A stretch of 35,219 nt of DNA from a virus. The notes under the pieces are model-generated. The model made no database searches, was not told where the DNA came from, and saw only the letters and a program-made list of their open reading frames with translations. Each line of letters begins with the position of its first letter. Position 1 is the stretch's first letter. The stretch covers positions 1 through 35,219 of IMG/VR virus record IMGVR_UViG_3300048587_000669. One strand, written 5' to 3'. This document shows, piece by piece, positions 4,794 through 34,512 of the stretch. Made by a program: the position numbers and the translations under genes.

Positions 4794-4934
4794 GGTGGTC
4801 TCCGAGAGGGGATTATCCTGGTGAGGGCGGCGACGGCGCGGTTCTTGGCGGAGCTCGCCGTCGCTGCCCGGCTTGGGTGGATTGACCCTGGTGGGTGGTG
4901 GTCCACGAACCCGAACCAGGCGCCCCCGGGTGTG

Positions 4935-4982: not shown

Positions 4983-4990
4983 AGCATTTT

Positions 4991-5189: not shown

Positions 5190-5218
5190 ACAGTGCGGTA
5201 TCGTATCGAAGTGGCGTT

Positions 5219-16981: not shown

Positions 16982-17185
16982 AAGCCATCACCCGTGGGAC
17001 TGAACGCCCACCTCCCGCCGCACCTCCGAGAGGTGTGCAGCATCCTGGCCGCGGGGCTGCTGCGGCTGCGCAGCCGCGCCGCCGAGGAAGCTGCGCGCGA
17101 GGCTGCTGACCGTGGAGAGCGTGGCCTACACTTCCCGGCCCCCCAGCGCCTGGATGCGAACCGGACCAACCGGAGACTCGCATGA
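16979..17185 (+). CDS. small protein before DUF2924
   Basis: 68 aa, unknown. HLPPHLREVCSILAAGLLRLRSRAAEEAAREAADRGE is probably one long helix, and the C-terminus is basic. Similar short genes often precede DUF2924 in alphaproteobacterial recombinase cassettes (recalled). The start has GGGTAGGG at a good distance and the stop overlaps the DUF2924 start (ATGA). A perfect 16-bp GC palindrome at 17062-17077 lies inside the gene and is probably a by-product of codon use. Confidence 0.6.
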   Translation: MKPSPVGLNAHLPPHLREVCSILAAGLLRLRSRAAEEAAREAADRGERGLHFPAPQRLDANRTNRRLA

Positions 17186-17688: not shown

Positions 17689-19034
17689 AGCGCAAGCCGA
17701 CCGCCGAAGCCGCGATGCCGGCCACGGTGCGGAAGATCCGAGCCGCCGTGTACACGCGCAAGTCGAGCGAGGAAGGGCTCGACATGGAGTTCAACTCGCT
17801 CGATGCGCAGCGCGAGGCCTGCGAGGCCTACATCACCAGCCAGCGGTCGGAGGGCTGGGTGCTGGTGCCGGACCGCTATGATGATGGCGGCGTATCTGGC
17901 GGCACTCTGGAGCGGCCAGCATTGCGCCGCATGCTGGCGGATATCGAGCGCGGCCGCCTCGATGTTATCGTCTGCTATAAACTGGACAGGCTGTCCCGCG
18001 CGCTGATGGATTTCGCCAAGCTGGTTGAAGTGTTCGATGCGAATAATGTAACTTTCGTTTCAATTACTCAATCTTTTAATACAACCACCAGCATGGGACG
18101 GCTGACGCTGAATATTCTGCTCAGCTTTGCACAGTTTGAGCGCGAATTAATTGGTGAGCGTATCCGCGACAAGGTCGCGGCGTCGCGTGCGCGCGGGATC
18201 TGGATGGGAGGCTTCGTGCCGCTCGGCTACGACGCGCGCGATCGCAAGCTGCTGGTGAATGAGGCCGAGGCGGCACTGGTGCGACGGATCTTCGAAGGCT
18301 TCATCGAGACGGAATCCGGCACGAAGCTGGTCACCATGCTCCGGGCGGAGGGCGCCACCACGAAGCGGGGCCGCGCATTTACGAAGAGCGACACCTATCG
18401 GGTGCTGAGCAACCGGACCTATCTCGGCGAGGCGATGCACAAAGGGAAGTCGCATCCCGGCGAGCATGCCGCCATCGTGCCGCAGGCGATGTGGGACGCG
18501 GCCCACGCCCTGCTGACGATCAGCCCGAGGACCCGCGCGAATCGCACGCGCTGCCAGACGCCCTCGCTGCTGCGCGGGCTGATCTTTGGTGAGGATGGCC
18601 GCGCTATGTCGCCGACCCACGCGCGGGGGCGCCGCGGCCAGCAGTACCGCTACTATGTCAGCCAGTCGGTGCTGAAGGGCAGCGCCGCGGACGGGCCGGC
18701 CATTGCGCGCATTTCGGCGGCAGAGATTGAGGGCGCGGTCATCGCGCAGGTCCGCGGGCTGCTGCGCCAGCCGGAGGTGGTGCTGGGCGCCTGGCGCGCC
18801 GCACGTGCCTCTGCGCCCGACATGACGGAGGACGAGGCGCGCCTTGCTCTGGAGCGCCTCGACCCGCTGTGGGAGGAGCTGTTCCCCGCGGAGCAGGCGC
18901 GGATTATCCGCCTCCTGGTCGACCGGGTGGACATAGGCGTCGGCGGCGCCGACGTGCGGCTCAAGCTCGAAGGGCTGGCCAGCCTTGCGCGGGACCTGGC
19001 CACGCCCGCTGAACCTACGAGGGCTGCGGCATGA
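17685..19034 (+). CDS. large serine recombinase (site-specific integrase)
   Basis: 449 aa. The resolvase domain begins at AAVYTRKSS, with S27 the likely nucleophile (Y-x-R-x-S), and continues through DRYDDGGVSGGTLERPALRRML and YKLDRLSRA. The recombinase domain follows (GFVPLGYDARDRKLLVNEAEA...VRRIFE). The zinc-ribbon region (LLRGLIFGEDGRAMSPTHARGRRG) has none of the usual cysteines, so it would not bind zinc in the standard way. The enzyme would integrate or excise this element; tRNA-Ser at the right edge is a candidate landmark. Codons about 112-160 are strikingly AT-rich compared with the rest. Confidence 0.9.
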   Translation: MKRKPTAEAAMPATVRKIRAAVYTRKSSEEGLDMEFNSLDAQREACEAYITSQRSEGWVLVPDRYDDGGVSGGTLERPALRRMLADIERGRLDVIVCYKLDRLSRALMDFAKLVEVFDANNVTFVSITQSFNTTTSMGRLTLNILLSFAQFERELIGERIRDKVAASRARGIWMGGFVPLGYDARDRKLLVNEAEAALVRRIFEGFIETESGTKLVTMLRAEGATTKRGRAFTKSDTYRVLSNRTYLGEAMHKGKSHPGEHAAIVPQAMWDAAHALLTISPRTRANRTRCQTPSLLRGLIFGEDGRAMSPTHARGRRGQQYRYYVSQSVLKGSAADGPAIARISAAEIEGAVIAQVRGLLRQPEVVLGAWRAARASAPDMTEDEARLALERLDPLWEELFPAEQARIIRLLVDRVDIGVGGADVRLKLEGLASLARDLATPAEPTRAAA

Positions 19035-19585: not shown

Positions 19586-20662
19586 GTGATGGCTCGCAGC
19601 GACCTCCTTGTTTCAATTGTTCGCGCAGCGGCTACCGGCGATCGGCAGACGCTGAAGTCGGCCGCGGAGGCGCTGGCCGCCGATGAGCGAGCCAAGAAGC
19701 ATCATATTTTGGCCGATAGGCTTCAGCGCGCGCTGTCCGCTGTGCCGGTCACGCCGCCCCCACTGACGACGTCGAGCAGCAGCGGACCGACTTCGGGACG
19801 GGAAGCGATCTTAGAGGTCCAGCCTAGGACTCGTCTCGACGACCTGCTTCTCCCGCTGCCGGTCCGTGAGCTTGGCCGCCAACTTGTAGAAGAGCATTCC
19901 AGGGCGGACGTGCTCAGGGCGCACGGCTACGAACCCAGACATCGCGTACTATTGTCGGGTCCGCCCGGTAATGGGAAGACGTCTTTTGCCGAAGCTATTG
20001 CTGAAGCTCTTTCGCTTCCTTTTTTTGTTGTTCGATACGACTCCCTTATTGGTAGCTATCTGGGAGAAACAAACGTCCGACTTCGGAATTTGTTCGATTA
20101 CATTCGAACACAACCCAGCATTTTATTCTTCGATGAGTTCGATGCGATAGGTAAAGAGCGGGGAGACACGCATGAAACCGGCGAGATCAAGCGGGTCGTC
20201 TCGTTTCTTTTGATGCAACTAGATCAACTTCCCAGTTATGTTATTGTTATAGCCGCCACCAATCATGCAGAACTACTTGATCGGGCTGTTTGGCGTCGAT
20301 TCCAGATGAGGTTGTCCTTTCCTGCTCCGGATAGAAAGCAAGTTGAGGTGTTCCTCGAACGCATCGTATCGGGCTGGCCATCTGCGCCGCGGCACTCGGC
20401 TCAAAGAATGGCGAGCCGACTTGGCCCCGTGAGCTATGCCGAAGCGCTTGATTTCTGTCACAATGTGCGGCGCCGTCAAATACTCGGTCTTGGAGAAGTG
20501 AAAATCGATGATGCGGTCGAGACTGAACTGGGGCTTTGGTCGTCGCGTGTCCGACCCGAGGCGCTGAATGGCGAGCGATCCGACCAAGCCGCTTCTAAAA
20601 CTGGCGCCTCAGCCGGCTCGCGACAGACCCGTAGGCAGGCAAAGGACGGTACCGAAGCCTAA
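19586..20662 (+). CDS. ietA: AAA+ ATPase, IetA-like
   Basis: 358 aa. An N-terminal helical region is followed by an AAA+ domain. Walker A is GPPGNGKT (G125-T132), the pore-loop-like segment is YDSLIGSYLGET, and Walker B is LFFDEF (D183, E184). Sensor 1 is AATNHAELLD, and arginines lie at AVWRRF. A basic, disordered tail ends the protein. FtsH/Cdc48-like ATPases paired with a subtilase are the IetA-IetS arrangement, first described on an Agrobacterium Ti plasmid as a stability/toxin-antitoxin pair and later listed among antiphage systems (recalled). The start is GTG at 19586 or ATG at 19589. AGGGGG at 19572-19577 favours the GTG. The gene is AT-richer than its neighbours, so it has a separate origin. 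Confidence 0.82.
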   Translation: MMARSDLLVSIVRAAATGDRQTLKSAAEALAADERAKKHHILADRLQRALSAVPVTPPPLTTSSSSGPTSGREAILEVQPRTRLDDLLLPLPVRELGRQLVEEHSRADVLRAHGYEPRHRVLLSGPPGNGKTSFAEAIAEALSLPFFVVRYDSLIGSYLGETNVRLRNLFDYIRTQPSILFFDEFDAIGKERGDTHETGEIKRVVSFLLMQLDQLPSYVIVIAATNHAELLDRAVWRRFQMRLSFPAPDRKQVEVFLERIVSGWPSAPRHSAQRMASRLGPVSYAEALDFCHNVRRRQILGLGEVKIDDAVETELGLWSSRVRPEALNGERSDQAASKTGASAGSRQTRRQAKDGTEA

Positions 20663-23090
20663 CGCCTTTCCACAAGGGCGCCAGACCGCTGCCTTTTCAC
20701 CGAAGTTCGATCGCCTAGCGCAGGTCCTAGAGCGCGACTCCACTGGCCTTGAACTGAGGGCAGACGCAACGGCCCTGGCTCCCGAGCGTCTGCTCGTGTT
20801 CGAGGTGCGAGGCAGCGTCGGGCAGTTCGCCGCGGCAGTGCGACGCGTGCCGGGCTTGGAACTCGTTGACGAAGAGGAATTGGAAGGGGACGGTCAGGAC
20901 GACGCTCCCGTTGCGTACTTGATGGTGCCCGATGTCAGGGCGCTTGGTGACTTACTTTCCTTATGGCGCCGGTGGACGGCTGATCAGCTTCGCCATGGGG
21001 AGACCCCGTGGAGAGATGTTTTTTCGCTCCTGCGAGATCTGCGACCGTGGGGCGCAGCCGATCGGGTTCAATCTCGTGAGTCAGACATTTTGACTGAAGA
21101 GATTGCCGGCCGTAGCCAAGATGATCGCGTGAAGCTTGAAATCGAGCTCGTCTACAGATCTGGCGATCAAGTCGGTATCGCCCGAGAAAATGAAGTTCTC
21201 ACTGCTGTTCTGGCTTGGGGCGGACGATTGATATCTAGATGCCGAATCGATTCTATCGCTTATCACGCAATTCTGGCTGAACTTCCAGTCCACGCTGTGC
21301 GTGCTATTATTGACCGCAATCCCACAAGCATTGTGTCATTGGATCCTGTGATGCATATCCGACCGCAAAGCATCGCGAGCTCCATTGATATTGCAGACGC
21401 CGATGACGCGGGAAGCACACCAGGTGCTCGAACTCTTGCAGAGCCAATTCTGGCCCTTCTCGACGGCGTGCCGATCGCGGCCCACCCACTGCTTGCAGAG
21501 CACCTGGTGGTTGATGATCAGTTTGGGTTGGAGCCCGAATCGCCTGTTGCGAACCGTGTCCATGGAACCGCGATGGCTTCGCTGATCGTACACGGAGATC
21601 GCAATCGGGCAGAGGCGCCACTACCGAGGCGGGTGCATGTAGTGCCGGTAATGGGCGCCCAGGACTGCTTTCCGGACGACCGGCTTATTGTGGACATCAT
21701 TTTCCGCGCGGTGGTAGCAATGCGCGAGGGCGCCAATGCAACAGCGCCGCATGTCCTCATCGTCAATTTGTCGCTCGGAAATGCGCGCCGACCGTTTCAC
21801 GGGCAAATATCGGCATGGGCGAGATTGATAGATCGTCTATCATATCAATACGGAATTTTGTTTATTGTCAGCGCTGGAAATTGCACAGATCCGTTTCCCA
21901 TTACCGCATACGCAAACAGTATTCAGTTTGAAGACGCACCATCTGCTCATCGGTCTGCGGAAACGCTGCGCGCAGTTGCTGCGCTCGTCGCGGACCGGCG
22001 CCTATTTTCACCAGCGGAGACCGTAAACGGTATTACTGTTGGCGCAGCCAATATCGACGCGGTTCCTGTAGCCGACCGCGTAGTAGCAAGATCGATCGTC
22101 AATCCGTATTTAGAGCAGCGCATGGCCAACCCGTCGAGCGCACTCGGACCCGGCTTTGCGCGTTCTGTAAAGCCCGACATCCTTATGCCCGGTGCGCGCG
22201 AACATCTTCGAATGGTCAGCAGCAACCCGCATATAGAGGTCAGGCCGTCTGGCCCCGCCCGTTCGGCCGGCCTGAAGGTTGCCGGACCACCGCAAGCAGG
22301 GCGCGAGAACGTCGAAAGTTACACAAACGGCACGAGTGGAGCAGCTGCACTCGCATCGCGGACCTGCCATCGCATTCATGATGCGCTTGAGGCAGCCTAC
22401 GGCGCTGACTTCGTTCGCCTACCCCACGTCCAGCGCGCGGTCCTGATCAAGGCGTTGCTCGCCCATCCGGCGAGTTGGCCCGACGAGGCCGCCACACTCA
22501 TTCGCACAACGATCGGTCCGCCCGAAGGCAAGTATCACACGCGACAAAAGGACAATATCCGGAGATTCCTCGGGTTCGGCATCGTCGATGCTGACGATGC
22601 GGTGGCTTGCGCCGCCGATCGAGCAACATTCTGGGCAACAGGGACGCTCGAAGCTAACAAAGTCTGCAATATCGACGTGCCGCTGCCGGTAGCGATGGGG
22701 GGAAGGGCATCGTCTCATTCGCTTTCAGCTACTTTGGCCTGGTTCACTCCCATCTCACCGGGCCGCAGGAGCTACAGGGCCGTCCGTCTGAAGCTTCTTG
22801 AGCCTGATGGCCTAGCCGACTTGAGCGTGAGTGCGCATTCCAATCAGCCGGACGGCAACCAGACAAATCGTGGCACCCTTTTCAACAGGTGCTGGACTGG
22901 GGATAGCGCTGCCGTGATTAGCCCGAGCATGTCGATCAAGTTGACTGTGCAACGTGATCCTGATCAGGGCGAGGCGATCGACGAGGCCATCCCCTTCGGC
23001 TTTGCGGTGACCCTGGCAATGCCAGGAGCCATCCAAATTTATGAGCAGGTCCGGCAGCGGCTCGCGATCGTCCCGCGCGCTCCAGCGTGA
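20568..23090 (+). CDS. ietS: subtilisin-like serine protease, IetS-like
   Basis: 840 aa. A basic N-terminus (KPLLKLAPQPARDRP) leads into a long N-domain. The peptidase S8 triad is D299 (ALLDGVP), H332 (VHGTAMASL) and S590 (NGTSGAAAL). N438 (VSAGN) is the oxyanion residue. The C-terminal 200 residues form a beta-rich domain. There is no signal peptide, so it acts in the cytoplasm. In IetAS the protease is the toxic arm and the AAA ATPase its control partner. The start lies 95 nt inside ietA, an unusually long out-of-frame overlap. It is kept because the N-terminal motif fits the family and no later start is good. Confidence 0.85.
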   Translation: MASDPTKPLLKLAPQPARDRPVGRQRTVPKPNAFPQGRQTAAFSPKFDRLAQVLERDSTGLELRADATALAPERLLVFEVRGSVGQFAAAVRRVPGLELVDEEELEGDGQDDAPVAYLMVPDVRALGDLLSLWRRWTADQLRHGETPWRDVFSLLRDLRPWGAADRVQSRESDILTEEIAGRSQDDRVKLEIELVYRSGDQVGIARENEVLTAVLAWGGRLISRCRIDSIAYHAILAELPVHAVRAIIDRNPTSIVSLDPVMHIRPQSIASSIDIADADDAGSTPGARTLAEPILALLDGVPIAAHPLLAEHLVVDDQFGLEPESPVANRVHGTAMASLIVHGDRNRAEAPLPRRVHVVPVMGAQDCFPDDRLIVDIIFRAVVAMREGANATAPHVLIVNLSLGNARRPFHGQISAWARLIDRLSYQYGILFIVSAGNCTDPFPITAYANSIQFEDAPSAHRSAETLRAVAALVADRRLFSPAETVNGITVGAANIDAVPVADRVVARSIVNPYLEQRMANPSSALGPGFARSVKPDILMPGAREHLRMVSSNPHIEVRPSGPARSAGLKVAGPPQAGRENVESYTNGTSGAAALASRTCHRIHDALEAAYGADFVRLPHVQRAVLIKALLAHPASWPDEAATLIRTTIGPPEGKYHTRQKDNIRRFLGFGIVDADDAVACAADRATFWATGTLEANKVCNIDVPLPVAMGGRASSHSLSATLAWFTPISPGRRSYRAVRLKLLEPDGLADLSVSAHSNQPDGNQTNRGTLFNRCWTGDSAAVISPSMSIKLTVQRDPDQGEAIDEAIPFGFAVTLAMPGAIQIYEQVRQRLAIVPRAPA

Positions 23091-23306: not shown

Positions 23307-26216
23307 ATGGGCGTCAAGGGGGGCAGCAAGCCGCGCGATGATGTTTTGCAGGGCGAGTTGGATGACGCCATCTTCGCAGCCAGCTTCGGCAAGCTGATCC
23401 GCAACGACGGCCCGCTAATTTATCGCGATCCGGATCAGTTCTTCAAAAATACTCACCCAACCGCTGCCTTGTCGAAACTCTGCCGCGACGTCTTCGGCCG
23501 ACTCGCGTCGACCACCGAGGCCGGGGCAATTCTGCGCCTGTCGACCGGGTTCGGGGGCGGCAAGACCCACGCACTCATGACGCTCTGGCACCTGGCGAAG
23601 GTGATGGGCGACCCGACCAAAGGTACTGACCTCCTTCCTCCCGCTGGCCGCCCTCCTTCCGTCCGCATCTGTGGCATCGACGCCGAAGGCGCAGGCTATC
23701 CGGTCTTCGCCCGGCATGGCGACCTTGAGGCAAAGAGCCTCGCGGCCGAGCTCGCCTTCCAGCTGGGCGGCCCGAGCGCCCTCAACGCCCTCGGCCCCAC
23801 CAACAGCGCCGCTGCCTCGCCAGACGAGCAGACAGTCGAATCCTGGCTCCCTAACGAGCCGACCCTGATCCTCCTCGACGAGCTCGTCCTGCACATGGAC
23901 AAGCTGACAGAGCAGGAAATCGGCAACCTGATCGGCTTCCTCCGCACGTTGATGACGGCCATCGCCACCCGGAAGCAGACCGTGCTGGTCATCACGGACC
24001 CCAAGGACCAGCCGGCCAACGCTCAGGGCGCAGCACGCCTGCAGCACCTCGCGCGCGTGCTGGAGCAGCAGACCGGCCGTCAGGCCACCGTGATCGAGCC
24101 GATCGGCAACGAGACCGCCCAGGTCATCATTAGGCGCCTGTTCGACACGGTGGACCCCGCCTTCGCAGCAAAGGCTTCGGCCGACCACCATGCCCTCTAC
24201 CAGCGCGTAGCTCAGGACCATCCAACCCTGGTGCCGGAGGAAGCGCGCTCGCCGAAATACGCCGAGCGCCTCCGCGCCTGCTATCCGCTGCATCCGCGCC
24301 TGATCAAGACGGCCGAAGAGCGTCTCCGCGTCCTGCCGGACTACAACCTCTCCCGCGGTACGCTCCGCCTGTTCGCCAGGATGGTCCGCGGCGTGTGGGA
24401 CGACCCCGCGCGCGATCCTGACATCATCACCGCCGGCGAGATCAACTGGTCCAGCCCGCTGATCCAGGACGACCTCCTCGAACGGCTGGGTCGCGAGAAA
24501 TTCCGTGCTGCCGTTGCCGCCGATGTCGAGGGGCACGCCGGTGACCTGGATAGCGGCAGCTGGGGACACCACCGCCGCGTCGCGTCAGCGCTGTTGCTAG
24601 AAAGCCTCCCACTGGAAGCCAATAGCGGCCTCGATCCTGCCGACCTGACCCTTGCCGTGCTGCGGCCGGAGGATGGCGGCGACGAACCATCCCACGCGCT
24701 CGATCGCCTCGCCGGAGCCTGCTGGCACCTGTACCCGATGAGCGGCAGCGCCAATGCCTGGCAGTTTCGCTACGAGCCCAACATCCTGAAGCAGATCGAG
24801 GAGCGGATGGGGCAGGTGCCGCGCCCCGACGCGCTCGACCGCCTGAAGACCGAGGTTCAGAAATCCTTCCAGGGTGCCTTCGCCAAGCTGCTCGCCTGGC
24901 CGCCCAACGCCAAGGCGGTGCCGGAGCGTCCCGAACTGCAGCTTGCGCTCTGCGAGAGCGAGGACATCGCAAAGCTGGTCGTCGCCTACACTGACGACAC
25001 GCCGGGCGCCGAGACCATGCGGACCTACCGCAACGCCATCCTGGCCGTGGCGCCGGATGCCAACGGACTGGAGAAGGCGATCCAACGCATCCAGCGCCTG
25101 ATGGCCGCGGAGGCCATCGAGGCGGAGCAGACCTCGAGCGAGGGCGGCAAGCTGGCGCGCGAGCAGCTCAAGAAGCAGATCCCCGAACTGCGTAAGGCGA
25201 CGCGGCTGGAAGCGGCGCGTGCGTTCAACCGCCTGGTCCTGGCGGATGGGGCCGGCCTCACCATCGATGAGCGCTTCATCGCACCGCCCGACACTCCGCC
25301 GATGCAGCTTCCCTCCGGTCAGGACGCCGTGAAAGCCTTCGTCGAAGACCGCAAGCTGATCTACGGCGACACCGACAGTCTGTTCCCTGATCGCTTCGTG
25401 GAACTCGTGTTCAGTGGCGCGGTGCCGTTGACGGATGAACCCGAAGCGCGCGCAGCATCCGCCCTGCAGAAGCGATTCCTCTCCGCCCAGGGCCTACGCC
25501 TGGTTCCGAATGCGAGCGTCATCCGCAGTTCCATCCTGCGGGCCGTCACGGATGGCAAGCTGGTCGTGCGGCAGGAGGACGGCACCGCCTTCGACGACAA
25601 GGGTGCGGTCTACACGACCAATGGCCATCGCCGGCGTGATGATGGGCGCAAGCTAACGACACTGCCGATGGATGATGCGACCAGGGTTGCCGAGGCCAGC
25701 AGCGCAACGGGCAAGGAATGGCTGAAGGTGTCCGGCGCGCAGGAAGCGATGCCGAAGCCCGGCAGCCTGCCGCTGCCACCGCCGCCGCCCAAGAACGCTG
25801 GCGCCACCTCAACCACCGACACCGAGGTAGCATCCACCTACGCTGACAAGCGCGCCCTGCTGAGCCTTCGCATCACCTGTCTCACCGCGGCGGATGCGCA
25901 GAAGGCGCTTGGTGCCGCCAGCCCGCTCGGCGCGGCCGAAATCACCATCGAGGCCGAGCTGACCGGCGACATGAAGGACGGTGGCAAACTGACCTTTAGC
26001 GTGGCGGAGACGAAGGTTGCTGCCGCCATTAAACCTCTGACTATGGCGCAGACCTTGGGCAATGCCTTGGCGCCTGGCAGTTCGATCCGCGTGACCGTGG
26101 TGCTGGGCTTCGGCAAAGACGGCAAGGCCGATTTGGGTGCATCACTGCGGAGCTTGTTCATGCAACTACCGGATACCGCCACCATCGAAGCGCGCTTCGC
26201 GCCGCTTTCGGCCTGA
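23307..26216 (+). CDS. DUF499 P-loop ATPase (BrxC/PglY-like)
   Basis: 969 aa. The Walker A motif GFGGGKTH lies at 81-88 after the DUF499-type lead-in (AILRLSTGFGGGKTHALMTLWHLAK). Walker B is LILLDE at 187-192, and VLVITDPKDQ follows. A Pro-rich linker (about 815-832) precedes a C-terminal domain with KRALLSLRI and FSVAETKV strands. DUF499 proteins include BrxC/PglY of BREX and occur in other antiphage islands; the ATPase is thought to drive a large complex. I chose the ATG at 23307, with AAGG and GGGGGA upstream. An in-frame ATG at 23214 would add 31 unconvincing residues. It is the first gene of the five-gene operon. Confidence 0.85.
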   Translation: MGVKGGSKPRDDVLQGELDDAIFAASFGKLIRNDGPLIYRDPDQFFKNTHPTAALSKLCRDVFGRLASTTEAGAILRLSTGFGGGKTHALMTLWHLAKVMGDPTKGTDLLPPAGRPPSVRICGIDAEGAGYPVFARHGDLEAKSLAAELAFQLGGPSALNALGPTNSAAASPDEQTVESWLPNEPTLILLDELVLHMDKLTEQEIGNLIGFLRTLMTAIATRKQTVLVITDPKDQPANAQGAARLQHLARVLEQQTGRQATVIEPIGNETAQVIIRRLFDTVDPAFAAKASADHHALYQRVAQDHPTLVPEEARSPKYAERLRACYPLHPRLIKTAEERLRVLPDYNLSRGTLRLFARMVRGVWDDPARDPDIITAGEINWSSPLIQDDLLERLGREKFRAAVAADVEGHAGDLDSGSWGHHRRVASALLLESLPLEANSGLDPADLTLAVLRPEDGGDEPSHALDRLAGACWHLYPMSGSANAWQFRYEPNILKQIEERMGQVPRPDALDRLKTEVQKSFQGAFAKLLAWPPNAKAVPERPELQLALCESEDIAKLVVAYTDDTPGAETMRTYRNAILAVAPDANGLEKAIQRIQRLMAAEAIEAEQTSSEGGKLAREQLKKQIPELRKATRLEAARAFNRLVLADGAGLTIDERFIAPPDTPPMQLPSGQDAVKAFVEDRKLIYGDTDSLFPDRFVELVFSGAVPLTDEPEARAASALQKRFLSAQGLRLVPNASVIRSSILRAVTDGKLVVRQEDGTAFDDKGAVYTTNGHRRRDDGRKLTTLPMDDATRVAEASSATGKEWLKVSGAQEAMPKPGSLPLPPPPPKNAGATSTTDTEVASTYADKRALLSLRITCLTAADAQKALGAASPLGAAEITIEAELTGDMKDGGKLTFSVAETKVAAAIKPLTMAQTLGNALAPGSSIRVTVVLGFGKDGKADLGASLRSLFMQLPDTATIEARFAPLSA

Positions 26217-26220
26217 ACGC

Positions 26221-26664
26221 GTGGCATCGGCACAGGTCCAGGCCACGCGCGCGGCGCCTTTCGCCTTGCGCGTGGTGCAGCGGCAGCAAGGGCTTGCGGC
26301 GATCATTTACCGCCGGCGCGTGAATGACAGGATGGAGGAACGCTTCGATCGTGTGGCGGCGCTTTCGCCGCTCGCGCTCACCGCGGCTTCGGGCCTTTTG
26401 CGTGCGGCGCTGAAGGCCGCGGGCGGCAAGTCGAAGCTGGAGCCAGGCCCGTATCAACCGCTCGACGAGGATTGGGGGGCACGCGTGGCGGGCTTCGCCA
26501 TAGTGGCGCGGGGCCTACGGGAAGCGCGGCGGCTGTCCAAGTCGGCCGAGCATTTCCGAGCGGCCGATGCGACCGAGGCAGCCTCCTGGTTCGGCCGCAT
26601 GCAGGACGGGCGGGCCCTGCGCTGGGTGCGCGCACTGAGAATCATCACTGAAGCTGTGAAGTAG
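26221..26664 (+). CDS. hypothetical 147-aa protein between DUF499 and DUF1156
   Basis: I do not recognise the family with confidence; short proteins such as DUF3780 or DUF7680 occupy this slot in related loci (recalled). The sequence is strongly basic and helical: RVVQRQQGLAAIIYRRRVNDRMEERFDRVAALSP, then RGLREARRLSKSAEHFRAA and WFGRMQDGRALRWVRAL. It has no catalytic motif. It starts with GTG at 26221, only 4 nt after the DUF499 stop; the ATG at 26137 would overlap that gene by 80 bp. It ends 17 bp before the methylase. A DNA-binding or assembly subunit is possible. Confidence 0.65.
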   Translation: MASAQVQATRAAPFALRVVQRQQGLAAIIYRRRVNDRMEERFDRVAALSPLALTAASGLLRAALKAAGGKSKLEPGPYQPLDEDWGARVAGFAIVARGLREARRLSKSAEHFRAADATEAASWFGRMQDGRALRWVRALRIITEAVK

Positions 26665-26681
26665 GGTCGGGGACGCAAAAC

Positions 26682-29681
26682 ATGCCGGATGGCACGAAGA
26701 CGGGGCGGCCTCGGCTGCTGATCGAGGACTGGCTGCCAGCGGCGGCGATTGGCGTGGAATGCATGCGGGAACGCGGCTCTGCAAGCGCCCTCGCTCCGAC
26801 TACGTATTTCCATGTGTGGTGGGCGCGGCGACCCTTGGCGGCAAGCCGCGCCGCGGTACTTGCGAGCGTGCTCCCAGCGGACTTTCCAAGAGAGACCTTT
26901 GAGCGGTTGATTGGCTTCGGGCGTTCGGGCCACGAACTTGTTGCTATTCGTGAACTAATGAACACTGGAGTTCAGGTCCCCGGCGGATTTGGTTCGCCTC
27001 GCGCATTCAAGGCACCTATTCGCACGAAAGACGTTCAAGCTGCCCATGCCGCGGCGACCCGAACTTGGGGGCACCTGCCAACCATAATGGACCCGATGTC
27101 CGGCGGCGGCTCAATCCCGCTGGAGAGCGCTCGGCTCGGCTTTCCGACCATAGCAAACGAGTACAACCCGGTTGCGTGCAGCGTGTTGGAGGCTACGCTC
27201 GACTATACGTTCCGTTTCGGACCGAAGCTCGCTGTTCGAGCACGCCATTGGGGTCGTGAGTGGGAAAAGCGTGTAGCAGCTCGGATTGGGCGCTTCTTTC
27301 CAAAGGAAACAGGCGCCAACGTCCAGGCCTATATCTTTGCCCGCACGGTCCCATGCCCGACAACAGGACACATGACACCGCTGGTGCCTGACTGGCATTT
27401 GCGAAAGCCGAAGGGCGGGATCCCCGTTGTAGCCGAGCCCATCGTCAACAAAGGATCTGGCACCTGGACGACCGCCATCCGCCCGGTAGGCATCGGCCAA
27501 GGCGCCATTGGTGCACCGCCGGTCCGCACCTATGCAAAGGGCAAAGGTATCAGCGTCTTTACCGGAGAGAGCATTCCGGCTGCATGGATTAAGGCTCAGG
27601 CCCAAGCGGGTCGCATGGGCAGTGCGCTCTACGCCGTCGCGCTGAAGACGCCGCAGGGTCTCAAATTTCGACCTCCGCAGCAAGCGGACCTCGATGCGTT
27701 GGAAGCGGCAGAGCAACAGCTCAATCAATGGCGTGGCGACTGGGAAGTAAGAAATCTGATTCCGACCGAGGAATATCCTCAGGTTACAACCGACCATCGG
27801 CCGCGCACCTACGGAATGCCGCGATGGGCCGATATGTTCAGCCCTCGCCAGCTTCTGGGTTTTGGCGTGTTGATGGAGGAATTGCAGGCTATCCGTAGCG
27901 AAATTATCTCGACTGACGGTGACGAGCTTGGAGAAGCAGTCGTACATCTTCTTGCTTTTGCCATCGACAAATTCGCGAACTGGAACGCGATTTTGTCATC
28001 CTGGAATGTCCGCGCCGAGACGGTCCGGAGCGTCTTCGATCGCCATGATTTCGCGTTCAAACTTACCTACTCAGAGATCGCCCCCGTCCAAGCGAGCGGT
28101 GGGCTAGCGTGGGTGATTGAAAACGTAGTTGACGCCTACGAGGCCATCGCGAAGCTGCCCCGTTTTGAGGGTGCCAAGGGTGTGGAGGCCACACAGGGGT
28201 CTGCCACCTCCCTTATCCATCTGGCCGACGCGTCACTTGAGGCTATCGTTGTCGACCCGCCGTATTCTGACAACGTTCAGTACAGCGAGCTCGCAGATTT
28301 CTTTTATGTCTGGCTCAAGCGGAGCCAGGGCCATCGACGCGCCGAATGGTTTTCCTCGCTACTCTGCGAGAACGGTGATGAAGCTGTAAAGAACGACGCC
28401 CGTTTCCGGATAGGGACCAAGAAGGCAAAGGATGCCGCAACTGCGGCACAGGCGCACTATCAGTCTCTGATGACTCAGGTTTTTGCCGAAGCGCGGCGAG
28501 TGCTTCGTCCAGATGGCGTCTTAACGGTGATGTTTACCCACAAGAAGCAGGAAGCCTGGGAAGCTCTTTTCGCTTCTCTGATTGATGCGGGCTTCACTAT
28601 CACTGCGACATGGCCCGTCAAGACGGAGGGAGAGCACAGCCTTCATCAAGCCAAGAAAAATGCTGCGCAATCCACCGTCATCCTTGTCGCGCGCGTTCGT
28701 GCAAATAGCGCAGGCACAGGATATTTTGATGGAGCGATGCAGCGCCGTATCCGTGATACCGCCGAAGCGGTTGCCGAGCGATTGTCTGCCGAGGGGCTGA
28801 ACCCAGTCGATCAACTCGTCGGAAGCTTCGGTCCAGCGATGGAAGTCTTCTCGGCTTACGATCAGGTGAGGACCGACACGGGCGAGCCCGTCGGCGTCGG
28901 CGCTGCGATCGACATCGCCGCCGATGCGGTCGCCGGGTGGCGTATCCGGCAATTGGCGCAAGGTGGATTGCAAGGGGTCGAGGGCGAGGCACAATTCGCT
29001 CTGCTTTGCTGGGCAACCCTCCGTGCTGCAGAATTCCGCTTTAACGAAGCGAAATTGCTCGGGCATGCGGTCGGCATGGACGTCTCGACGCTGCAGCAGG
29101 CCGGACTGATTGCCGTCAAGGCAGATAAGGTGAACATCCTTTCCGCTGCTGACCGACGGCGCGAGTCGCCACTGACCGAAGATGAAGCGCAGCAGCTTCT
29201 GTTTGGTTGGGAGCCGGGCAAAGGCAAGCGGCTGAAGAAGACCGAAGCGCTGAAGATCCATCCGCGTGACACGGTCTTCCGTACCCATCTCGACAAGGCC
29301 CAGGCCCTCGCCCTGACGTATGCCGATGCTGACGGCGGCGCAGCCGGTATCGGTGCCGCGCGATCCTTCGCCGCCCGTCACGGCATCAAGCTGGGCGATC
29401 CGACCGTCCGCCTGATCGAGGCGTTGCTGCGCGCCGCCCCGCCGGCTGTGCGTATCGAGAAGAATGCGGTGGCCCAGAAGTTTGCCGAGTTCCGCGCCTG
29501 GCACGCCATGCTCCTGCCGGTCTTCGGCCTAACCCCGCCGGACTGGACGGAGAAGAAGCCAGACCAAGCCGTTCTCGAACTGCTCGCCAAGACGGCCACG
29601 CCCAGCGCCGAAGACGCTGACGAGGTTGAGACCGAGGACGAGGAGGAAGATGACGAGGAGGAGGATGAGGAGGAAGAATGA
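26682..29681 (+). CDS. DUF1156 adenine-type DNA methyltransferase
   Basis: 999 aa. The N-terminus is the DUF1156 signature (LIEDWLPAAAIGVECMRERG...YFHVWWARRPLAASRAAVLASVLP). The SAM-binding motif DPMSGGGSIPLESARLGF is near residue 137. The catalytic VVDPPYSDNVQYSELADFFY is near 525, followed by EARRVLRPDGVLTVMFTHK. The C-terminal third has no clear motif and ends in an almost purely Asp/Glu tail (about 978-999). This is the COG1743/PglXI class of BREX type 3 and related islands, and would mark self DNA. The tail's GAG/GAA codons double as the ribosome site of the next gene. The middle of the gene is lower in GC than its 3' third. Confidence 0.9.
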   Translation: MPDGTKTGRPRLLIEDWLPAAAIGVECMRERGSASALAPTTYFHVWWARRPLAASRAAVLASVLPADFPRETFERLIGFGRSGHELVAIRELMNTGVQVPGGFGSPRAFKAPIRTKDVQAAHAAATRTWGHLPTIMDPMSGGGSIPLESARLGFPTIANEYNPVACSVLEATLDYTFRFGPKLAVRARHWGREWEKRVAARIGRFFPKETGANVQAYIFARTVPCPTTGHMTPLVPDWHLRKPKGGIPVVAEPIVNKGSGTWTTAIRPVGIGQGAIGAPPVRTYAKGKGISVFTGESIPAAWIKAQAQAGRMGSALYAVALKTPQGLKFRPPQQADLDALEAAEQQLNQWRGDWEVRNLIPTEEYPQVTTDHRPRTYGMPRWADMFSPRQLLGFGVLMEELQAIRSEIISTDGDELGEAVVHLLAFAIDKFANWNAILSSWNVRAETVRSVFDRHDFAFKLTYSEIAPVQASGGLAWVIENVVDAYEAIAKLPRFEGAKGVEATQGSATSLIHLADASLEAIVVDPPYSDNVQYSELADFFYVWLKRSQGHRRAEWFSSLLCENGDEAVKNDARFRIGTKKAKDAATAAQAHYQSLMTQVFAEARRVLRPDGVLTVMFTHKKQEAWEALFASLIDAGFTITATWPVKTEGEHSLHQAKKNAAQSTVILVARVRANSAGTGYFDGAMQRRIRDTAEAVAERLSAEGLNPVDQLVGSFGPAMEVFSAYDQVRTDTGEPVGVGAAIDIAADAVAGWRIRQLAQGGLQGVEGEAQFALLCWATLRAAEFRFNEAKLLGHAVGMDVSTLQQAGLIAVKADKVNILSAADRRRESPLTEDEAQQLLFGWEPGKGKRLKKTEALKIHPRDTVFRTHLDKAQALALTYADADGGAAGIGAARSFAARHGIKLGDPTVRLIEALLRAAPPAVRIEKNAVAQKFAEFRAWHAMLLPVFGLTPPDWTEKKPDQAVLELLAKTATPSAEDADEVETEDEEEDDEEEDEEEE

Positions 29682-32600
29682 CCGTCTCGCTCCGCGAGGT
29701 TGACTGGCCACGCTTCCTCCGCGCCCCGGACGGCCAGTTGGTCGCCCGGCTTTACGAGCCCGGGCTGCGTCGCGCGGTGCGCTACGATCGTTGCTGCGCC
29801 TACTTCTCCTCCTCCGTCCTCGCGGCCGCGGCCTCTGGCTTCGGCGCCTTCATCGAGCGCATTGTGGACGGAGCGATTACTCAGAAACCCGCGCTGCGCC
29901 TGCTGGTGAATGAGGAATTGGCTGAGCCCGATGTGCGGGCGCTGCTGGATGCCGGTGATGACGGGCCGCTGATCGGGGCCCTGCTCGCGCGGCTCGGCAC
30001 GCCCGAGACGGCCCTGCAGAAGGGGCGGCTCGAAATGTTGGCCTGGCTGGCCCGCGATGGCTGGCTGGAGATGAAGGTCGGCGTAATGCGATACGGCGAC
30101 GGCATTCTGCACGCCAAGTTCGGCTTGTTCGTGGATGCCGTCGGCGACGCTGTGATTTTCGACGGAAGTGGTAACGAGAGCAGCAGGGCGCTCCGTAGCA
30201 ACTACGAGATGCTGACGGTCGGCGGAAGTTGGGATGACACGAAGCGCCATCTGCATTTCCGCGACGAGTTCGACCTGCTCTGGTCCGGCGAAGATCCTGC
30301 TGTCGTCACAGTGTCGCTGCCAGACGCAGTGCGCGACGCGCTTATCAAACTCGCGCCGGAAGCACCGCCGCTGGCAGAACCCGAAGACAATCTGCGCCGC
30401 CAGCGGGCCGCGATGCTGTGGGGCTATGCCCTCGAAGCGCCCTACATGCCGGAGGGGGGCGCCGCGACCTGCGACGCGATGGCTCCCGTCACGCTCTGGC
30501 CGCATCAGCGGCATGTGGTGGCGGAGACGGCCGCCGCCTGGCCCGAGGGCCGCCTGCTCTGCGACGAGGTAGGTATGGGCAAGACGGTGGAGGCGATCCT
30601 TGCACTTCGCCGCTTGCTTGCGGGCCGGGGCGTGAAGCGCGCGCTGCTCCTGCCGCCTGCCAACCTGCTCCCGCAGTGGCAGGGGGAGCTGCGCGAGAAG
30701 GGCGGCCTGCGCGTGCCGCGGATGGAGGGGCCTAGGACGCTCGTCTGGCCCGATGAGACGAGGCAGACGGTCTCTGGGTTGGCCGAGGCCCTCGACCAGC
30801 CTCTGCTGCTGCTCAGTCGAGAGACGGCGCGGTCCGAAGGCAACTTGCCGGCGCTGCTGGCTGCGCCTCCATGGGACCTCGTACTGCTCGACGAGGGCCA
30901 CGCCGCCCGCCGTGCCAGCCAGGTCGAGGGCGAGTTCAACACGCCGACGCTGCTTCTCGGGCTGCTGAGACAGATGCAGATCAAGGATCAGGCGCGCAGC
31001 TTCATGATCCTGTCGGCCACGCCGATGCAGACGCATCCGTGGGAGCCGTGGGATCTGCTTCAGGTGTTGGGTGAGGGTGGGCTGTGGCTCTCCGGCTTCC
31101 ATGTCGTGCGGCGGTTCTATGAGGCGCTGGCGAGCCTGGAACGCGGGGCCCTTCCGCGGACCGAGGGCATCGCGTTGGCCCACATTCTGGTGGCGACGCC
31201 GCAATGTCCGCCGGCGCCGGCCAGCCTTGGATTGCCGCCTATCGATGATGCCGACGCCTTCGCAAAGGCGCTGCGGTTCCTGCCGCCGGCATCCCGCCAG
31301 GACGCTGTGCGCTGGCTGCGGACCTGCTCGCCACTCGCGAGGCGCATGCACCGCAACACGAGGCAAACGCTGCGCAAGTACTTCGACATGGGCCTGCTGG
31401 AACGGCCACCGCCGACCCGTGCCGTCACAGACGACCCCTTCGACTTCGAGACCGCTGAGGAGCGGGAGGTCTATGAGGCGGTAACGAGCTACATCGACCG
31501 CCGCTTCGACGAGTTGGAGAACCAGAAGCCTGGCAAGGGCTTCGTGATGACGATCTATCGTCGCCGTGCCGCGAGCTCGCCGGTGGCGCTACGGAAAAGC
31601 CTGGAACGGCGCGCGACCGGTCTGAAAGCCGTCATCGCCCAGCACGCACCGGATCCGAGCATTCTCGACCTGGAAGATGCCCAAGAACTCGAGGACCTGC
31701 TGAATGTGAAGCTGACCTCAGCGTTGCCGGAGACGCCGGAGGAAGCGCGCGCAGAACTTGGCGAAGTCGAAGACCTGCTGGAACGTATTGCGGCACTCGG
31801 CGCCTTGGATACCAAGCGCGACCGGCTGGTGGCACGAACCAAGCAGCTCACCGGCGATGGTCGCGCCGTGCTGATCTTCACGGGCTACTCCGACACGATG
31901 GCGTATCTGCGCGATGCCCTGGTCGGTGCCTTTGGCGCCTCGGTGGCGTCCTACTCCGGCGAGGGTGGTGCCCTGAGATCGGGGAACGGCTGGGTTTACG
32001 CCTCGAAGGAGGTGGTCACCAAGGCGCTCCGCGACGGCACGATCAAGGTTCTGGTTTGCACGGACGCGGCCAGCGAGGGGCTGAACCTCCAAGCCGCCGG
32101 TGCCTTGGTCAACTTCGACCTGCCGTGGAATCCGTCGAAAGTTGAACAGCGGATTGGGCGCATCGACCGCATTGGACAGGAGCTTCCTGTCCTACCCGTC
32201 ATCAATCTCTACCTGAAGCACAGTGTGGACGAGCGGGTTTACCGGGCGCTGGCGTCGCGCTGCGGCCTATTCGAGACCTTCGTGGGCCCGATGCAGCCGG
32301 TGCTTTCACAGGCGCTGCGGATGCTGATCGGCCGCGCCGAGGTTGATGAGGAAGCGCTGGCCCGAGCAGCAGACGAGATCCGGACCAATCCCACGCTGAT
32401 GCAGGCATTTCCCGAGGACGAGCCGGTTCCCATGGTTGCCGAGACTGGTCTCGTCTCAGCAAGTGACACCGAGGCACTCCTCGCGGCGTTGGACGGGACG
32501 GGTGTGCGTGTGACGGCGGAGAGCAACGCCCTTCACCGGATCGGGGACGGACCCCTCCGCTTGGTAACGCAACCGTCTGCGATCACTGCCAGCCCGGAGG

Positions 32601-33226
32601 CCGCCTGCGTCGATGGGCTGGACCAGCGTCAACACGCGATGTGCCGGCAGCTACAGCAGCCTGGTGAGCGGCTGCCACTGCTGCTGGTTTCGGCTGAGGC
32701 GGGCGCCTTTCGGGTCACGCTCTGCGCATGGTTGGGTGACGGGGGAATGCAGGAGGTCAGGTCCTTCGCCGACCTCAAGACTCTGGTGGCGTCCTGGAAT
32801 GGCAAGGAGGCCCCAACGGGAGCCTGGCAGGCCGCGAGAGCGGAGCTGCGCCTCGCTGCGCAGAGCAAAGTCGCAGATATGGCCGACCGATCCGCGACCG
32901 CGGCTGCATCGAAAGCCGCAGCTCAGAATGAAGCTGCACGGCTCCGGTTGGTCGACGAGCTCGGCCGGCTCCTTATCTGCTTTGAGCCGGATATCGATGA
33001 TCTGAATGGGAAATTTCATCGACTAGCGACCGACCAGACTCCCACCGCTCATCGGCTCCAGAATGTATTTGGGCGGCTTGGAGGCTACCCGGATTGGGAA
33101 GGACACCACATCGCCGACCTCCGCGAGTTTCGAGCGAACCTCGGTCCGAGTCAGGTGAAGACTCGGCTCACTGGCCGGGAGTTGGATGCAGCATTAGCAG
33201 ACCCGCGTTGGGGTAAGCCGCAGTGA
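29678..33226 (+). CDS. PLD-nuclease/SNF2-helicase fusion
   Basis: 1182 aa. The N-terminal 200 residues are a phospholipase-D-like domain with one HKD-type site: HAKFGLFVD (H145, K147), then GSGNES (about 163-168). The SNF2/superfamily 2 motor follows. Motif I is DEVGMGKT (about 296-303), motif II is DEGH (405-408) and motif III is SATPMQT. TDAASEGLNLQ and motif VI QRIGRIDRIGQ (824-834) complete it. The C-terminus is helical. DISARM DrmD and BREX type 3 helicases share the motor, and the fused PLD domain could be the DNA-cutting part; a single HKD site usually needs a dimer. The start overlaps the methylase stop (ATGA). Confidence 0.88.
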   Translation: MTVSLREVDWPRFLRAPDGQLVARLYEPGLRRAVRYDRCCAYFSSSVLAAAASGFGAFIERIVDGAITQKPALRLLVNEELAEPDVRALLDAGDDGPLIGALLARLGTPETALQKGRLEMLAWLARDGWLEMKVGVMRYGDGILHAKFGLFVDAVGDAVIFDGSGNESSRALRSNYEMLTVGGSWDDTKRHLHFRDEFDLLWSGEDPAVVTVSLPDAVRDALIKLAPEAPPLAEPEDNLRRQRAAMLWGYALEAPYMPEGGAATCDAMAPVTLWPHQRHVVAETAAAWPEGRLLCDEVGMGKTVEAILALRRLLAGRGVKRALLLPPANLLPQWQGELREKGGLRVPRMEGPRTLVWPDETRQTVSGLAEALDQPLLLLSRETARSEGNLPALLAAPPWDLVLLDEGHAARRASQVEGEFNTPTLLLGLLRQMQIKDQARSFMILSATPMQTHPWEPWDLLQVLGEGGLWLSGFHVVRRFYEALASLERGALPRTEGIALAHILVATPQCPPAPASLGLPPIDDADAFAKALRFLPPASRQDAVRWLRTCSPLARRMHRNTRQTLRKYFDMGLLERPPPTRAVTDDPFDFETAEEREVYEAVTSYIDRRFDELENQKPGKGFVMTIYRRRAASSPVALRKSLERRATGLKAVIAQHAPDPSILDLEDAQELEDLLNVKLTSALPETPEEARAELGEVEDLLERIAALGALDTKRDRLVARTKQLTGDGRAVLIFTGYSDTMAYLRDALVGAFGASVASYSGEGGALRSGNGWVYASKEVVTKALRDGTIKVLVCTDAASEGLNLQAAGALVNFDLPWNPSKVEQRIGRIDRIGQELPVLPVINLYLKHSVDERVYRALASRCGLFETFVGPMQPVLSQALRMLIGRAEVDEEALARAADEIRTNPTLMQAFPEDEPVPMVAETGLVSASDTEALLAALDGTGVRVTAESNALHRIGDGPLRLVTQPSAITASPEAACVDGLDQRQHAMCRQLQQPGERLPLLLVSAEAGAFRVTLCAWLGDGGMQEVRSFADLKTLVASWNGKEAPTGAWQAARAELRLAAQSKVADMADRSATAAASKAAAQNEAARLRLVDELGRLLICFEPDIDDLNGKFHRLATDQTPTAHRLQNVFGRLGGYPDWEGHHIADLREFRANLGPSQVKTRLTGRELDAALADPRWGKPQ

Positions 33227-34512
33227 CTGGTCCGATGTTTCTCTCGCTGGATTCGGCTGCGATGGCGGAGTGCATCGGCGGCGCCCAGGTCTCAGTCTGC
33301 TATGCGGCACCGGGGATCCAGCAAGAACCCGCAGAGGCCCTGGCCCGCCTGGCCAAGCACCTTGATCCGGTCCTGATCACAGTGATCCTGGACTTCGATG
33401 AACGCGTGATGCGCATGGGGTTCGGGGACCTCGCTGCTGTAGCGGTTCTCCGAGGCGCCGGGATCACCGTGCGCTCAACCCCAGGGCTACGCACCGGCCT
33501 CCTGGTGGTTGACGACGCGGGTTTCATCTTCACGCCCATCGCCCGGTACCTCGAGGCCGACCGGCGAGAGACCGAGGCTCCGAACGCCCTCCGCTTGTCT
33601 CCGGAGCAGGTGCGGGAAGCCCTCGCTCGGCTTTCCCCGGCTGCCAAGGCGATAGCCGTAGCGATGGCGAAGACGCCCGAGGAGCGGGAAAGGATCCAGG
33701 AGCAAGCCGTCGAGGTGCGCTCCGACGACATCCCGCCGGCCCAGTTCGCCAAGGTCGAGCAAAGCCTGCAGGACGCGCCACCGGTGAGGTTCGACGTCGC
33801 CCGCCAGGTCCGCGTCTTCGAGCCCTACCTGCAGTACGTGGAACTGAATCTCACCGGCGCGGCCATTCAGCGGCGCAAGCTGGCGATTCCCAAGGTCATC
33901 CAGAACCTCGGAGCGGCGGAGGGGGCGCAGTCGAGGTTCAACACGACCTTTGACCTGATCGAACGCGAAAGCGAGCTGTCCTCAAAGGATATTGAGGATG
34001 CGCTGAAGGGCATCCGGGACAATTTCACGCCCTCACTCGGGAAGGATCACGGCCGTGTGGTGTTGAAGGCGCAGAAGCCGTTGTTCGAGCAGCGGCTCGA
34101 AGAACTGCGCGCCAAGCTGGAGGAATTCCAAGCCAAGGTGAGAGAAAAGCTGCAAGGCAGCCTCAATGCGTCCCGCGACGAGATCGTCACCTATTATGTT
34201 CCAGCAGTGTTGGCGAACCCGCCTGACAAATTCCTCGGGCAATTGCTGTCGGCAAAGCCCACCGATGAGGGCGCCCGCCGCTGGCTGCGGCAGCAGCTGG
34301 AAGGTGTCATCCCAAAGGCGGACGAGCTGATCAAGAAGATGGAGCTCAAGCAGACGTACAAGGACGTGACATTCGAGACCCTGAACAAGCCAGATTTCCT
34401 CCAAAGCCTTCGGGATGCTTTCCCAGCTGTGGACTGGGACAAGGCGTACAAAGAATTTCAGGCAGCAGGCGAAGCAACCTCTCCGGTGGCCCCAGGCGGC
34501 GGGAGTGGCTGA
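33223..34512 (+). CDS. 429-aa protein, coiled coil with possible degenerate PLD fold
   Basis: No family recognised. Residues 1-110 alternate strands and helices (AQVSVCYAAPGI, VLITVILDFDERVMRMG, GITVRSTPGLRTGLLVVDDAGFIFTP). The last segment resembles the HxK strand region of PLD proteins but with Arg-Thr-Gly in place of His-x-Lys, so it would be inactive. Residues about 285-310 (QRLEELRAKLEEFQAKVREKLQ) are a strong coiled coil. The C-terminus is helical with a Gly-rich end. It starts with GTG overlapping the helicase stop (GTGA), so it is translationally coupled. It is probably a structural or sensing partner of the helicase. Confidence 0.75.
   Translation: MTGPMFLSLDSAAMAECIGGAQVSVCYAAPGIQQEPAEALARLAKHLDPVLITVILDFDERVMRMGFGDLAAVAVLRGAGITVRSTPGLRTGLLVVDDAGFIFTPIARYLEADRRETEAPNALRLSPEQVREALARLSPAAKAIAVAMAKTPEERERIQEQAVEVRSDDIPPAQFAKVEQSLQDAPPVRFDVARQVRVFEPYLQYVELNLTGAAIQRRKLAIPKVIQNLGAAEGAQSRFNTTFDLIERESELSSKDIEDALKGIRDNFTPSLGKDHGRVVLKAQKPLFEQRLEELRAKLEEFQAKVREKLQGSLNASRDEIVTYYVPAVLANPPDKFLGQLLSAKPTDEGARRWLRQQLEGVIPKADELIKKMELKQTYKDVTFETLNKPDFLQSLRDAFPAVDWDKAYKEFQAAGEATSPVAPGGGSG

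What the first reader, a model, noticed from the sequence alone, without database searches (positions are those of the whole stretch)
23307..34512. Five-gene defence operon: BrxC-like ATPase, small protein, DUF1156 methylase, PLD-SNF2, coiled-coil protein
The set combines hallmarks of BREX type 3 (DUF499 ATPase, DUF1156 methylase, helicase) and DISARM (methylase, SNF2 helicase, PLD) without PglZ, BrxA, BrxL, DrmA or DrmB. Related DUF499/DUF1156/helicase sets are named as antiphage-associated in protein family databases (recalled). The five-gene content with a fused PLD nuclease and the 429-aa partner may be a distinct or little-described type. I cannot exclude that it has been described under another name.
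Basis: partly seen in the sequence, partly recalled or inferred. Interest (0 to 1): 0.85.

Follow-up and report, generated by a model that had tools for sequence, protein, structure and literature searches.

The report
BREX-related restriction operon with portable accessory
This mobile DNA element carries a restriction-modification-like phage-defence operon: four genes form a little-described branch of the already published "BREX-related" systems, and a fifth gene belongs to an unnamed family that also turns up inside quite different restriction systems.

Summary
The five genes are real, tightly coupled and under purifying selection. The first four (DUF499 ATPase, 147-aa protein, DUF1156 methylase, PLD/HKD-SNF2 helicase) are a conserved operon, also found in Alphaproteobacteria, Rhodococcus, Cyanobacteria and haloarchaea. 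It is a member of the DUF499-centred BREX-Related (BR) systems published in January 2026, whose Type 2 also carries an N-terminal HKD nuclease on the helicase. The Type-2 hallmark DUF3780 is absent. Its slot holds DUF7680 (PF24728), probably a remote DUF3780 homologue by position, profile alignment and predicted fold, and the methylase falls in a separate clade. No held paper mentions DUF7680. The fifth gene (429 aa) is not part of the core: none of about 44 DUF7680 plasmids carries it. It has no profile in four family libraries and a predicted catalytically dead PLD-fold N-terminus. Relatives sit next to BREX-1, Type I RM, DISARM-type, Type IIG, GmrSD and BR genes; a 91% identical copy lies beside a different methylase in Roseicella. 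It looks like a portable accessory of restriction systems. Defence activity and methylation are inferred, not shown. Verdict: new variant of a known kind; the accessory family is the most novel part.

The parts
23307..26216 (+). DUF499 (ORC/Cdc6-like AAA+) ATPase, 969 aa, Walker A GFGGGKTH, Walker B LILLDE
   Evidence: PF04465 E 3.4e-18; NCBIfam DUF499_antiphage E 1.1e-42, 146 bits against a cut-off of 1200; PADLOC HmaC 201 bits
26221..26664 (+). DUF7680 protein, 147 aa, in the slot that DUF3780 occupies in Type-2 BR systems
   Evidence: PF24728 E 5.7e-8; AlphaFold2 pLDDT 84.7, three long strands and one short strand plus helices; hhalign to DUF3780
26682..29681 (+). DUF1156 DNA methylase (predicted N6-adenine), DPPY at residue 525, diverging blocks at residues 81-120 and 401-520
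   Evidence: PF06634 E 2.3e-14; PADLOC HmaB 287 bits; identity profile; tree
29678..33226 (+). HKD (phospholipase-D-like) nuclease fused to SNF2 helicase, 1182 aa; HAK...GSGN at residue 145, DEGH, QRIGRIDRIGQ
   Evidence: NCBIfam phospholipD_antiphage E 7.9e-90; PADLOC PLD_Helicase 204 bits; motifs
33223..34512 (+). 429-aa accessory protein: predicted inactive PLD-fold N-terminus (~1-110), 50-residue helix 282-331, invariant KDVT near the C-terminus
   Evidence: no Pfam, NCBIfam, PADLOC or PHROG family at E 1e-3; AlphaFold2 pLDDT 82.6; Foldseek; alignment of 33 members
19586..20662 (+). IetA AAA ATPase (neighbouring, separate defence pair)
   Evidence: PADLOC IetA E 6.6e-143
20568..23090 (+). 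IetS subtilisin-like protease (neighbouring, separate defence pair), S8 motifs present
   Evidence: PADLOC IetS E 5.6e-279; motifs
17182..17688 (+). DUF2924 protein preceding the recombinase
   Evidence: PF11149 E 1.4e-49
17685..19034 (+). large serine recombinase, probable integrase of the mobile element
   Evidence: PF00239 E 1.5e-39, PF07508
34802..34891 (-). tRNA-Ser (cga), followed by the start of rplU: chromosomal side of the insertion
   Evidence: ARAGORN; rplU read directly from the sequence after 35127

Best explanation
A restriction-modification-like BREX-Related (BR) defence system of a DUF7680-bearing lineage close to Type 2, carried as cargo of an integrating element, plus one portable accessory gene. 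Most likely working (inferred): the DUF1156 methylase marks host DNA at a site set by its variable region; the DUF499 ATPase with the DUF7680 protein assembles on DNA and checks the mark; on unmarked incoming DNA the SNF2 motor moves and the fused HKD domain cuts. The 429-aa protein is not needed for this core. It is an adaptor with a dead PLD fold that restriction systems of several kinds take up, probably binding DNA or a shared feature of the restriction complex to modulate cutting or to answer anti-restriction proteins. Shown here: gene content, motifs, operon coupling, purifying selection, conservation of the four-gene core, its relation to BR families, and the varied contexts of the 429-aa family. 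Not shown: defence, methylation, cutting, or any activity of the 429-aa protein.
For: Family hits and intact motifs. Same four-gene order in Rhodococcus, Sinorhizobium, Haloferax, Haloterrigena, viral contigs L006 and L120, and with insertions in Nostoc. By comparing accession lists, 37 of the 40 best helicase plasmid records also carry DUF7680. No DUF7680 plasmid is among the 20 DUF3780 plasmids, nor was DUF3780 found in 8 records behind these loci. DUF3780 has the same slot. hhalign DUF7680-DUF3780 score 26.0 over 146 colinear columns, 0 of 300 shuffles reach it (an earlier smaller profile gave 2 of 200). Predicted DUF7680 fold fits the published DUF3780 description (PMC12839542). 429-aa family beside Type I RM, BREX-1, DISARM-type, IIG, GmrSD and BR genes; its nearest kin lies in a different system.
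Against: No experiment and no methylome. All NCBIfam scores lie far below the curated equivalog cut-offs. In the DUF499 tree the DUF7680 rows are not one clade (54/69 at the deepest fork). The 429-aa protein accompanies the BR genes in only two contigs (window, L004), and in L004 only the end of the methylase, and no ATPase or DUF7680 gene, is present in the DNA held. 15 of 40 family loci show no recognised restriction gene, several being contig ends or fragments. PLD-fold matches have E above 0.01 and no sequence-level support.
Confidence: 0.78

Rival explanations
1. A distinct, self-contained five-gene system in which the 429-aa protein is an obligate component.
For: 4-bp overlap with the helicase in the window and in L004, 89% identical; purifying selection.
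Against: Homologous operons lack it: Roseomonas (L007, helicase followed by VapC), L120, Rhodococcus, Sinorhizobium, haloarchaea. No DUF7680 plasmid carries it. Most family members sit with other systems.
Confidence: 0.1
2. A Type-2 BR system in the strict published sense, with a DUF3780 so diverged that only DUF7680 models find it.
For: HKD-helicase architecture, gene order, DUF7680/DUF3780 profile alignment and fold.
Against: PF12635 not matched. DUF3780 methylases and ATPases are each a 100/100 clade that excludes all DUF7680 rows.
Confidence: 0.3
3. The 429-aa gene is a passive passenger of defence islands with no function in the neighbouring system.
For: Some loci are solitary or on contigs without restriction genes. 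The family is rare: 34 loci found by pattern search in 84,980 genomes.
Against: Embedded between pglX and pglZ with overlapping ends in Acinetobacter and overlapping pglX in Hydrogenophaga; overlapping ends in window, L014 and L048; low dN/dS.
Confidence: 0.2
4. The 429-aa protein is an abortive-infection effector that fires when the main system is inhibited (PARIS-like guard).
For: It occurs with several systems that share DNA-mimic inhibitors (established knowledge for Type I RM and BREX); BR and BREX loci are known to recruit such back-ups (PMC12839542).
Against: No nuclease or NTPase domain recognised; PLD catalytic His and Lys replaced by Arg and Gly in the window protein.
Confidence: 0.2

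Closest known systems
Type-2 BREX-Related (BR) system (DUF499-DUF3780-DUF1156-HKD/SNF2; NCBIfam 'anti-phage-associated' set)
   Same: Gene order, DUF499 ATPase, DUF1156 methylase, N-terminal HKD fused to SNF2 helicase, one small protein between ATPase and methylase.
   Different: Small protein is DUF7680, not DUF3780; methylase in a separate clade; scores far below the NCBIfam cut-offs; optional 429-aa gene.
Hma / Type-1 BR system
   Same: DUF499 ATPase, DUF1156 methylase and SNF2 helicase are homologous (HmaC 201, HmaB 287, HmaA 159 bits).
   Different: Published Type 1 has a C-terminal PD-(D/E)XK nuclease and no small gene; here an N-terminal HKD and a DUF7680 gene; methylase in a different clade.
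Type-3 BREX
   Same: ATPase, methylase and SNF2 helicase have homologues there.
   Different: No PglZ, BrxA or BrxB found; the ATPase matches DUF499, not DUF6079 (BrxC).
DISARM
   Same: DrmD-like SNF2 helicase (NCBIfam DrmD E 6e-58) and a PLD nuclease.
   Different: No DrmA/DrmB pair; PLD fused to the helicase; a DUF499 ATPase present.
DUF499-COG1743-SNF2/PLD operon of archaea (PMC7641849)
   Same: Same three large proteins, including a PLD fusion in some.
   Different: The small protein and the 429-aa gene are not mentioned in the passages read; no EVE-domain gene was found in the ORFs annotated here.

Membership tests
BREX-Related (BR) systems in general | DUF499 ATPase | tested here: met
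   PF04465 E 3.4e-18
BREX-Related (BR) systems in general | DUF1156 N6-methylase | tested here: met
   PF06634 E 2.3e-14, DPPY motif; base specificity not testable
BREX-Related (BR) systems in general | SNF2-family helicase in the same operon | tested here: met
   PF00176 and PF00271 with motifs
[quoted passage not shown]
   HAK...GSGN at residue 145, PLDc_2 83-202
Type-2 BR | standalone DUF3780 gene | tested here: not met
   PF12635 not matched by the small protein at E 10 nor found in 8 records of related loci; remote relation of DUF7680 likely
Type-2 BR | core proteins inside the Type-2 clade | tested here: not met
   Methylase tree: DUF3780 clade 100/100, DUF7680 rows separate; DUF499 tree: DUF3780 rows 100/100 without DUF7680 rows. 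Small samples.
Type-2 BR | no N-terminal TUDOR domain on the helicase | tested here: inconclusive
   HKD occupies the N-terminus and no TUDOR hit in Pfam; no structure of the helicase was predicted
Type-1 BR / Hma | C-terminal PD-(D/E)XK nuclease on the helicase | tested here: inconclusive
   No such Pfam hit; the C-terminal ~280 residues are unassigned
Type-3 BR and BREX | PglZ | tested here: not met
   No hit with a BREX-1 PglZ seed or PADLOC in the window
DISARM | DrmA and DrmB | tested here: not met
   No DrmB call; the only DrmA-model hit falls on the SNF2 core of the helicase
Any antiphage system | protection against phage | not testable with these tools
   needs plating assays
PLD superfamily (429-aa protein) | PLD fold | tested here: inconclusive
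   Top Foldseek hits are mostly PLD-superfamily proteins at probability 0.9-1.0 but E above 0.01; no sequence-profile support
PLD superfamily (429-aa protein) | catalytic HxK motif | tested here: not met
   'GLRTGLLVVDD' at the equivalent strand; Arg90 invariant in 33 members

The most novel reading that the evidence does not exclude
The 429-aa protein founds an unrecognised family of portable restriction co-factors: one dead-PLD protein that plugs into mechanistically different DNA-discriminating systems (Type I RM, BREX-1, DISARM-type, Type IIG, BR), which would imply a shared binding target, such as a common DNA intermediate or a common phage inhibitor.
Probability: 0.4. Interest if true: 0.72.

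Novelty: new variant of a known kind. Interest (0 to 1): 0.52.

Why it matters
It adds a lineage to the newly defined BR systems, suggests that DUF7680 and DUF3780 are one fast-evolving component, and shows that the core operon spans bacteria and haloarchaea. The 429-aa family gives a concrete handle on what unrelated restriction systems have in common: if one accessory protein helps BREX, Type I RM and BR alike, its target should reveal a shared step or a shared phage counter-measure.

Tried and rejected
Profile search for the 429-aa protein in Pfam, NCBIfam, PADLOC and PHROGs: nothing at E 1e-3. tblastn against phage records: no match. Blastn of its Acinetobacter homologue in E. coli genomes: no match. 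Sequence search in PDB: only coiled-coil matches, apolipoprotein and others. Homology between its N-terminus and the HKD domains of the helicases or the DrmC-like protein by hhalign: none. A first hhalign of DUF7680 against DUF3780 was borderline (2 of 200 shuffles) and became clear only with two more sequences and without the window-like members (0 of 300); column shuffles keep no order, so they are a lenient control. The 'single five-gene system' reading was rejected on gene content. DUF7680 was not found in ten genomes that carry the 429-aa gene. Foldseek against viral models gave only weak hits. A direct-repeat search for attachment sites gave no convincing pair.
Full report
What is there. 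Between 23307 and 34512 lie five co-directional genes: DUF499 ATPase, a 147-aa protein starting at GTG 26221, DUF1156 methylase, PLD-SNF2 helicase and a 429-aa protein. Gaps are 4 and 17 bp, then two 4-bp overlaps. Pfam and PADLOC name four of them. The small protein is DUF7680 (PF24728, E 5.7e-8); the 429-aa protein has no family at E 1e-3 in Pfam, NCBIfam, PADLOC or PHROGs. Motifs are intact, including HAK...GSGN of the nuclease, and dN/dS is 0.06-0.20 for all five.

Surroundings. Directly upstream is an IetAS pair (IetA E 7e-143, IetS E 6e-279), preceded by a large serine recombinase and a DUF2924 protein. Downstream are tRNA-Ser and the start of rplU. The left half carries methylases and AAA_25, DEAD and AAA_24 replication-type proteins. 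The record is from IMG/VR. No structural phage gene was seen among the ORFs scanned, though not every ORF was scanned, so the element may be a prophage, a satellite or an integrative element; the two defence sets lie between recombinase and tRNA. The host is probably a Roseomonas-like alphaproteobacterium (inference): nearest copies are in Roseomonas (helicase 88%) and Roseicella (429-aa protein 91-92%).

The conserved core is four genes. The same DUF499-DUF7680-DUF1156-HKD/SNF2 order is on plasmids of Rhodococcus, Sinorhizobium, Haloferax and Haloterrigena (DUF7680 confirmed by Pfam) and in IMG/VR contigs L006 and L120. Nostoc has it with insertions. Comparing accession lists, 37 of the 40 best helicase plasmid records also have a DUF7680 match. 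None of the roughly 44 DUF7680 plasmids is among the two plasmids with the 429-aa gene or the 20 with DUF3780. In sampled Pseudomonadota, DUF7680 was found in 3 of 398 genomes, DUF3780 in 1 of 398, DUF499 in 24 of 349. All three DUF7680 genomes also have DUF499 beside it.

Relation to known systems. Rakesh and Krishnan (PMC12839542) defined BR systems: DUF499 ATPase, DUF1156 N6-methylase and SNF2 helicase. Type 1 (= Hma) has a C-terminal PD-(D/E)XK, Type 2 an N-terminal HKD and DUF3780, Type 3 PglZ. The window has the Type-2 architecture without DUF3780. DUF3780 sits in the same slot in the loci fetched. A profile alignment of DUF7680 with DUF3780 scores 26.0 over 146 colinear columns (hhalign E 0.0046), and 0 of 300 column shuffles reach it, maximum 19.1. 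An earlier profile gave 22.3 with 2 of 200. The predicted DUF7680 fold, three long strands, one short strand and packed helices at pLDDT 84.7 (shallow alignment, five models uneven), fits the published wording for DUF3780, a four-stranded antiparallel sheet flanked by five helices. The methylase tree separates DUF7680 rows (94/95) from DUF3780 rows (100/100) and Hma-like rows. In the DUF499 tree DUF3780 rows are again 100/100, while DUF7680 rows are unresolved. I therefore file it as a BR system of a DUF7680 lineage, close to but not inside Type 2. No paper in the held library mentions DUF7680. An archaeal DUF499/COG1743/SNF2-PLD set was noted in 2020 (PMC7641849).

Variable parts. Compared with Roseomonas, the methylase drops from mostly 65-98% to 35% at residues 81-120 and to 50-58% at 401-520, just before DPPY, as expected for target-recognition change (inference). 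DUF7680 operons carry varied insertions: an MBL-fold gene between methylase and helicase (L007, L004), an OLD-type ATPase plus GmrSD there (L091, L097), and an HD-domain gene between DUF7680 and methylase (L107). This matches the auxiliary genes described for BR loci.

The 429-aa family. A pattern scan of 84,980 genomes gave 34 loci; with viral contigs and plasmids I examined 40. In 25 a restriction- or defence-type gene lies within about 6 kb: Type I RM same strand in 9 (L017, L021, L025, L026, L027, L033, L036, L040, L044) and opposite strand in 3 (L031, L032, L047); BREX-1 in 3 (L002 between pglX and pglZ with overlapping ends, L043, L045); DISARM-type DrmD in L022 (926 bits); IIG-type methylase in L028, L048, L049 (the last two near-identical); ISP-type methylase plus DrmC-like PLD in L014; DrmC-like remnant in L015; GmrSD in L019; OLD-type ATPase in L029; BR in window and L004. 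The remaining 15 are mostly contig ends, fragments or without recognised neighbours. No random-locus control was run; the enrichment is judged from the variety and the coupling. The tree places the window copy beside L014, in a different system, with L004 (BR) next, so the gene seems to move between systems on a short time scale. AlphaFold2 gives pLDDT 82.6 but pTM 0.49, so domain arrangement is uncertain. Residues 1-110 have the PLD half-domain order, and the top PDB matches are mostly PLD-superfamily proteins, at probability 0.9-1.0 but E above 0.01. The position of the catalytic HxK reads RTG, with Arg90 invariant in 33 members, so PLD-type catalysis is unlikely.

Mechanism. Inferred: methylase marks self; DUF499 with DUF7680 scans and assembles; HKD-SNF2 translocates and cuts unmarked DNA. 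The 429-aa protein most likely acts as an adaptor on a feature common to several restriction complexes, or as a response to anti-restriction proteins; a passenger role remains possible. None of these steps was tested here.

Verdict. Observation confirmed; interpretation partly supported; new variant of a known kind. The portable accessory family is the part worth a specialist's attention.

Noticed in passing
window 19586-23090: IetAS pair directly upstream of the BR operon. IetA/IetS homologues are also embedded between a DUF499-like ATPase and a methylase in two other genomes (L083, L085), suggesting a recurrent IetAS-DUF499 association.
   Followed up: partly
window 395-3167 (-): Two adjacent N6/N4 DNA methylases in the phage-like half of the record, with a shared 62-nt stretch at 71%.
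   Followed up: no
window 17182-19573: DUF2924 protein, large serine recombinase and a 180-aa protein matching PHROG 14161 'recombinase' in a row: integration module, with tRNA-Ser at the far end.
   Followed up: partly
window 4989-5167: Clustered short direct repeats TTGCGGAACTTGCGGAACTTG inside the 4248-5222 minus-strand ORF of no known family.
   Followed up: no
L007 10603-11928, L004 4910-6238: Metallo-beta-lactamase-fold gene inserted between methylase and helicase in the closest relatives of the operon, absent from the window.
   Followed up: partly
L014 1557-2864: DrmC-like PLD protein with intact HSK...GSHN next to a 429-aa homologue; a remnant lies next to the homologue in L015.
   Followed up: partly
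L021, L025, L026: RadC/JAB-domain gene between hsdR and the 429-aa homologue in three betaproteobacterial Type I loci.
   Followed up: no
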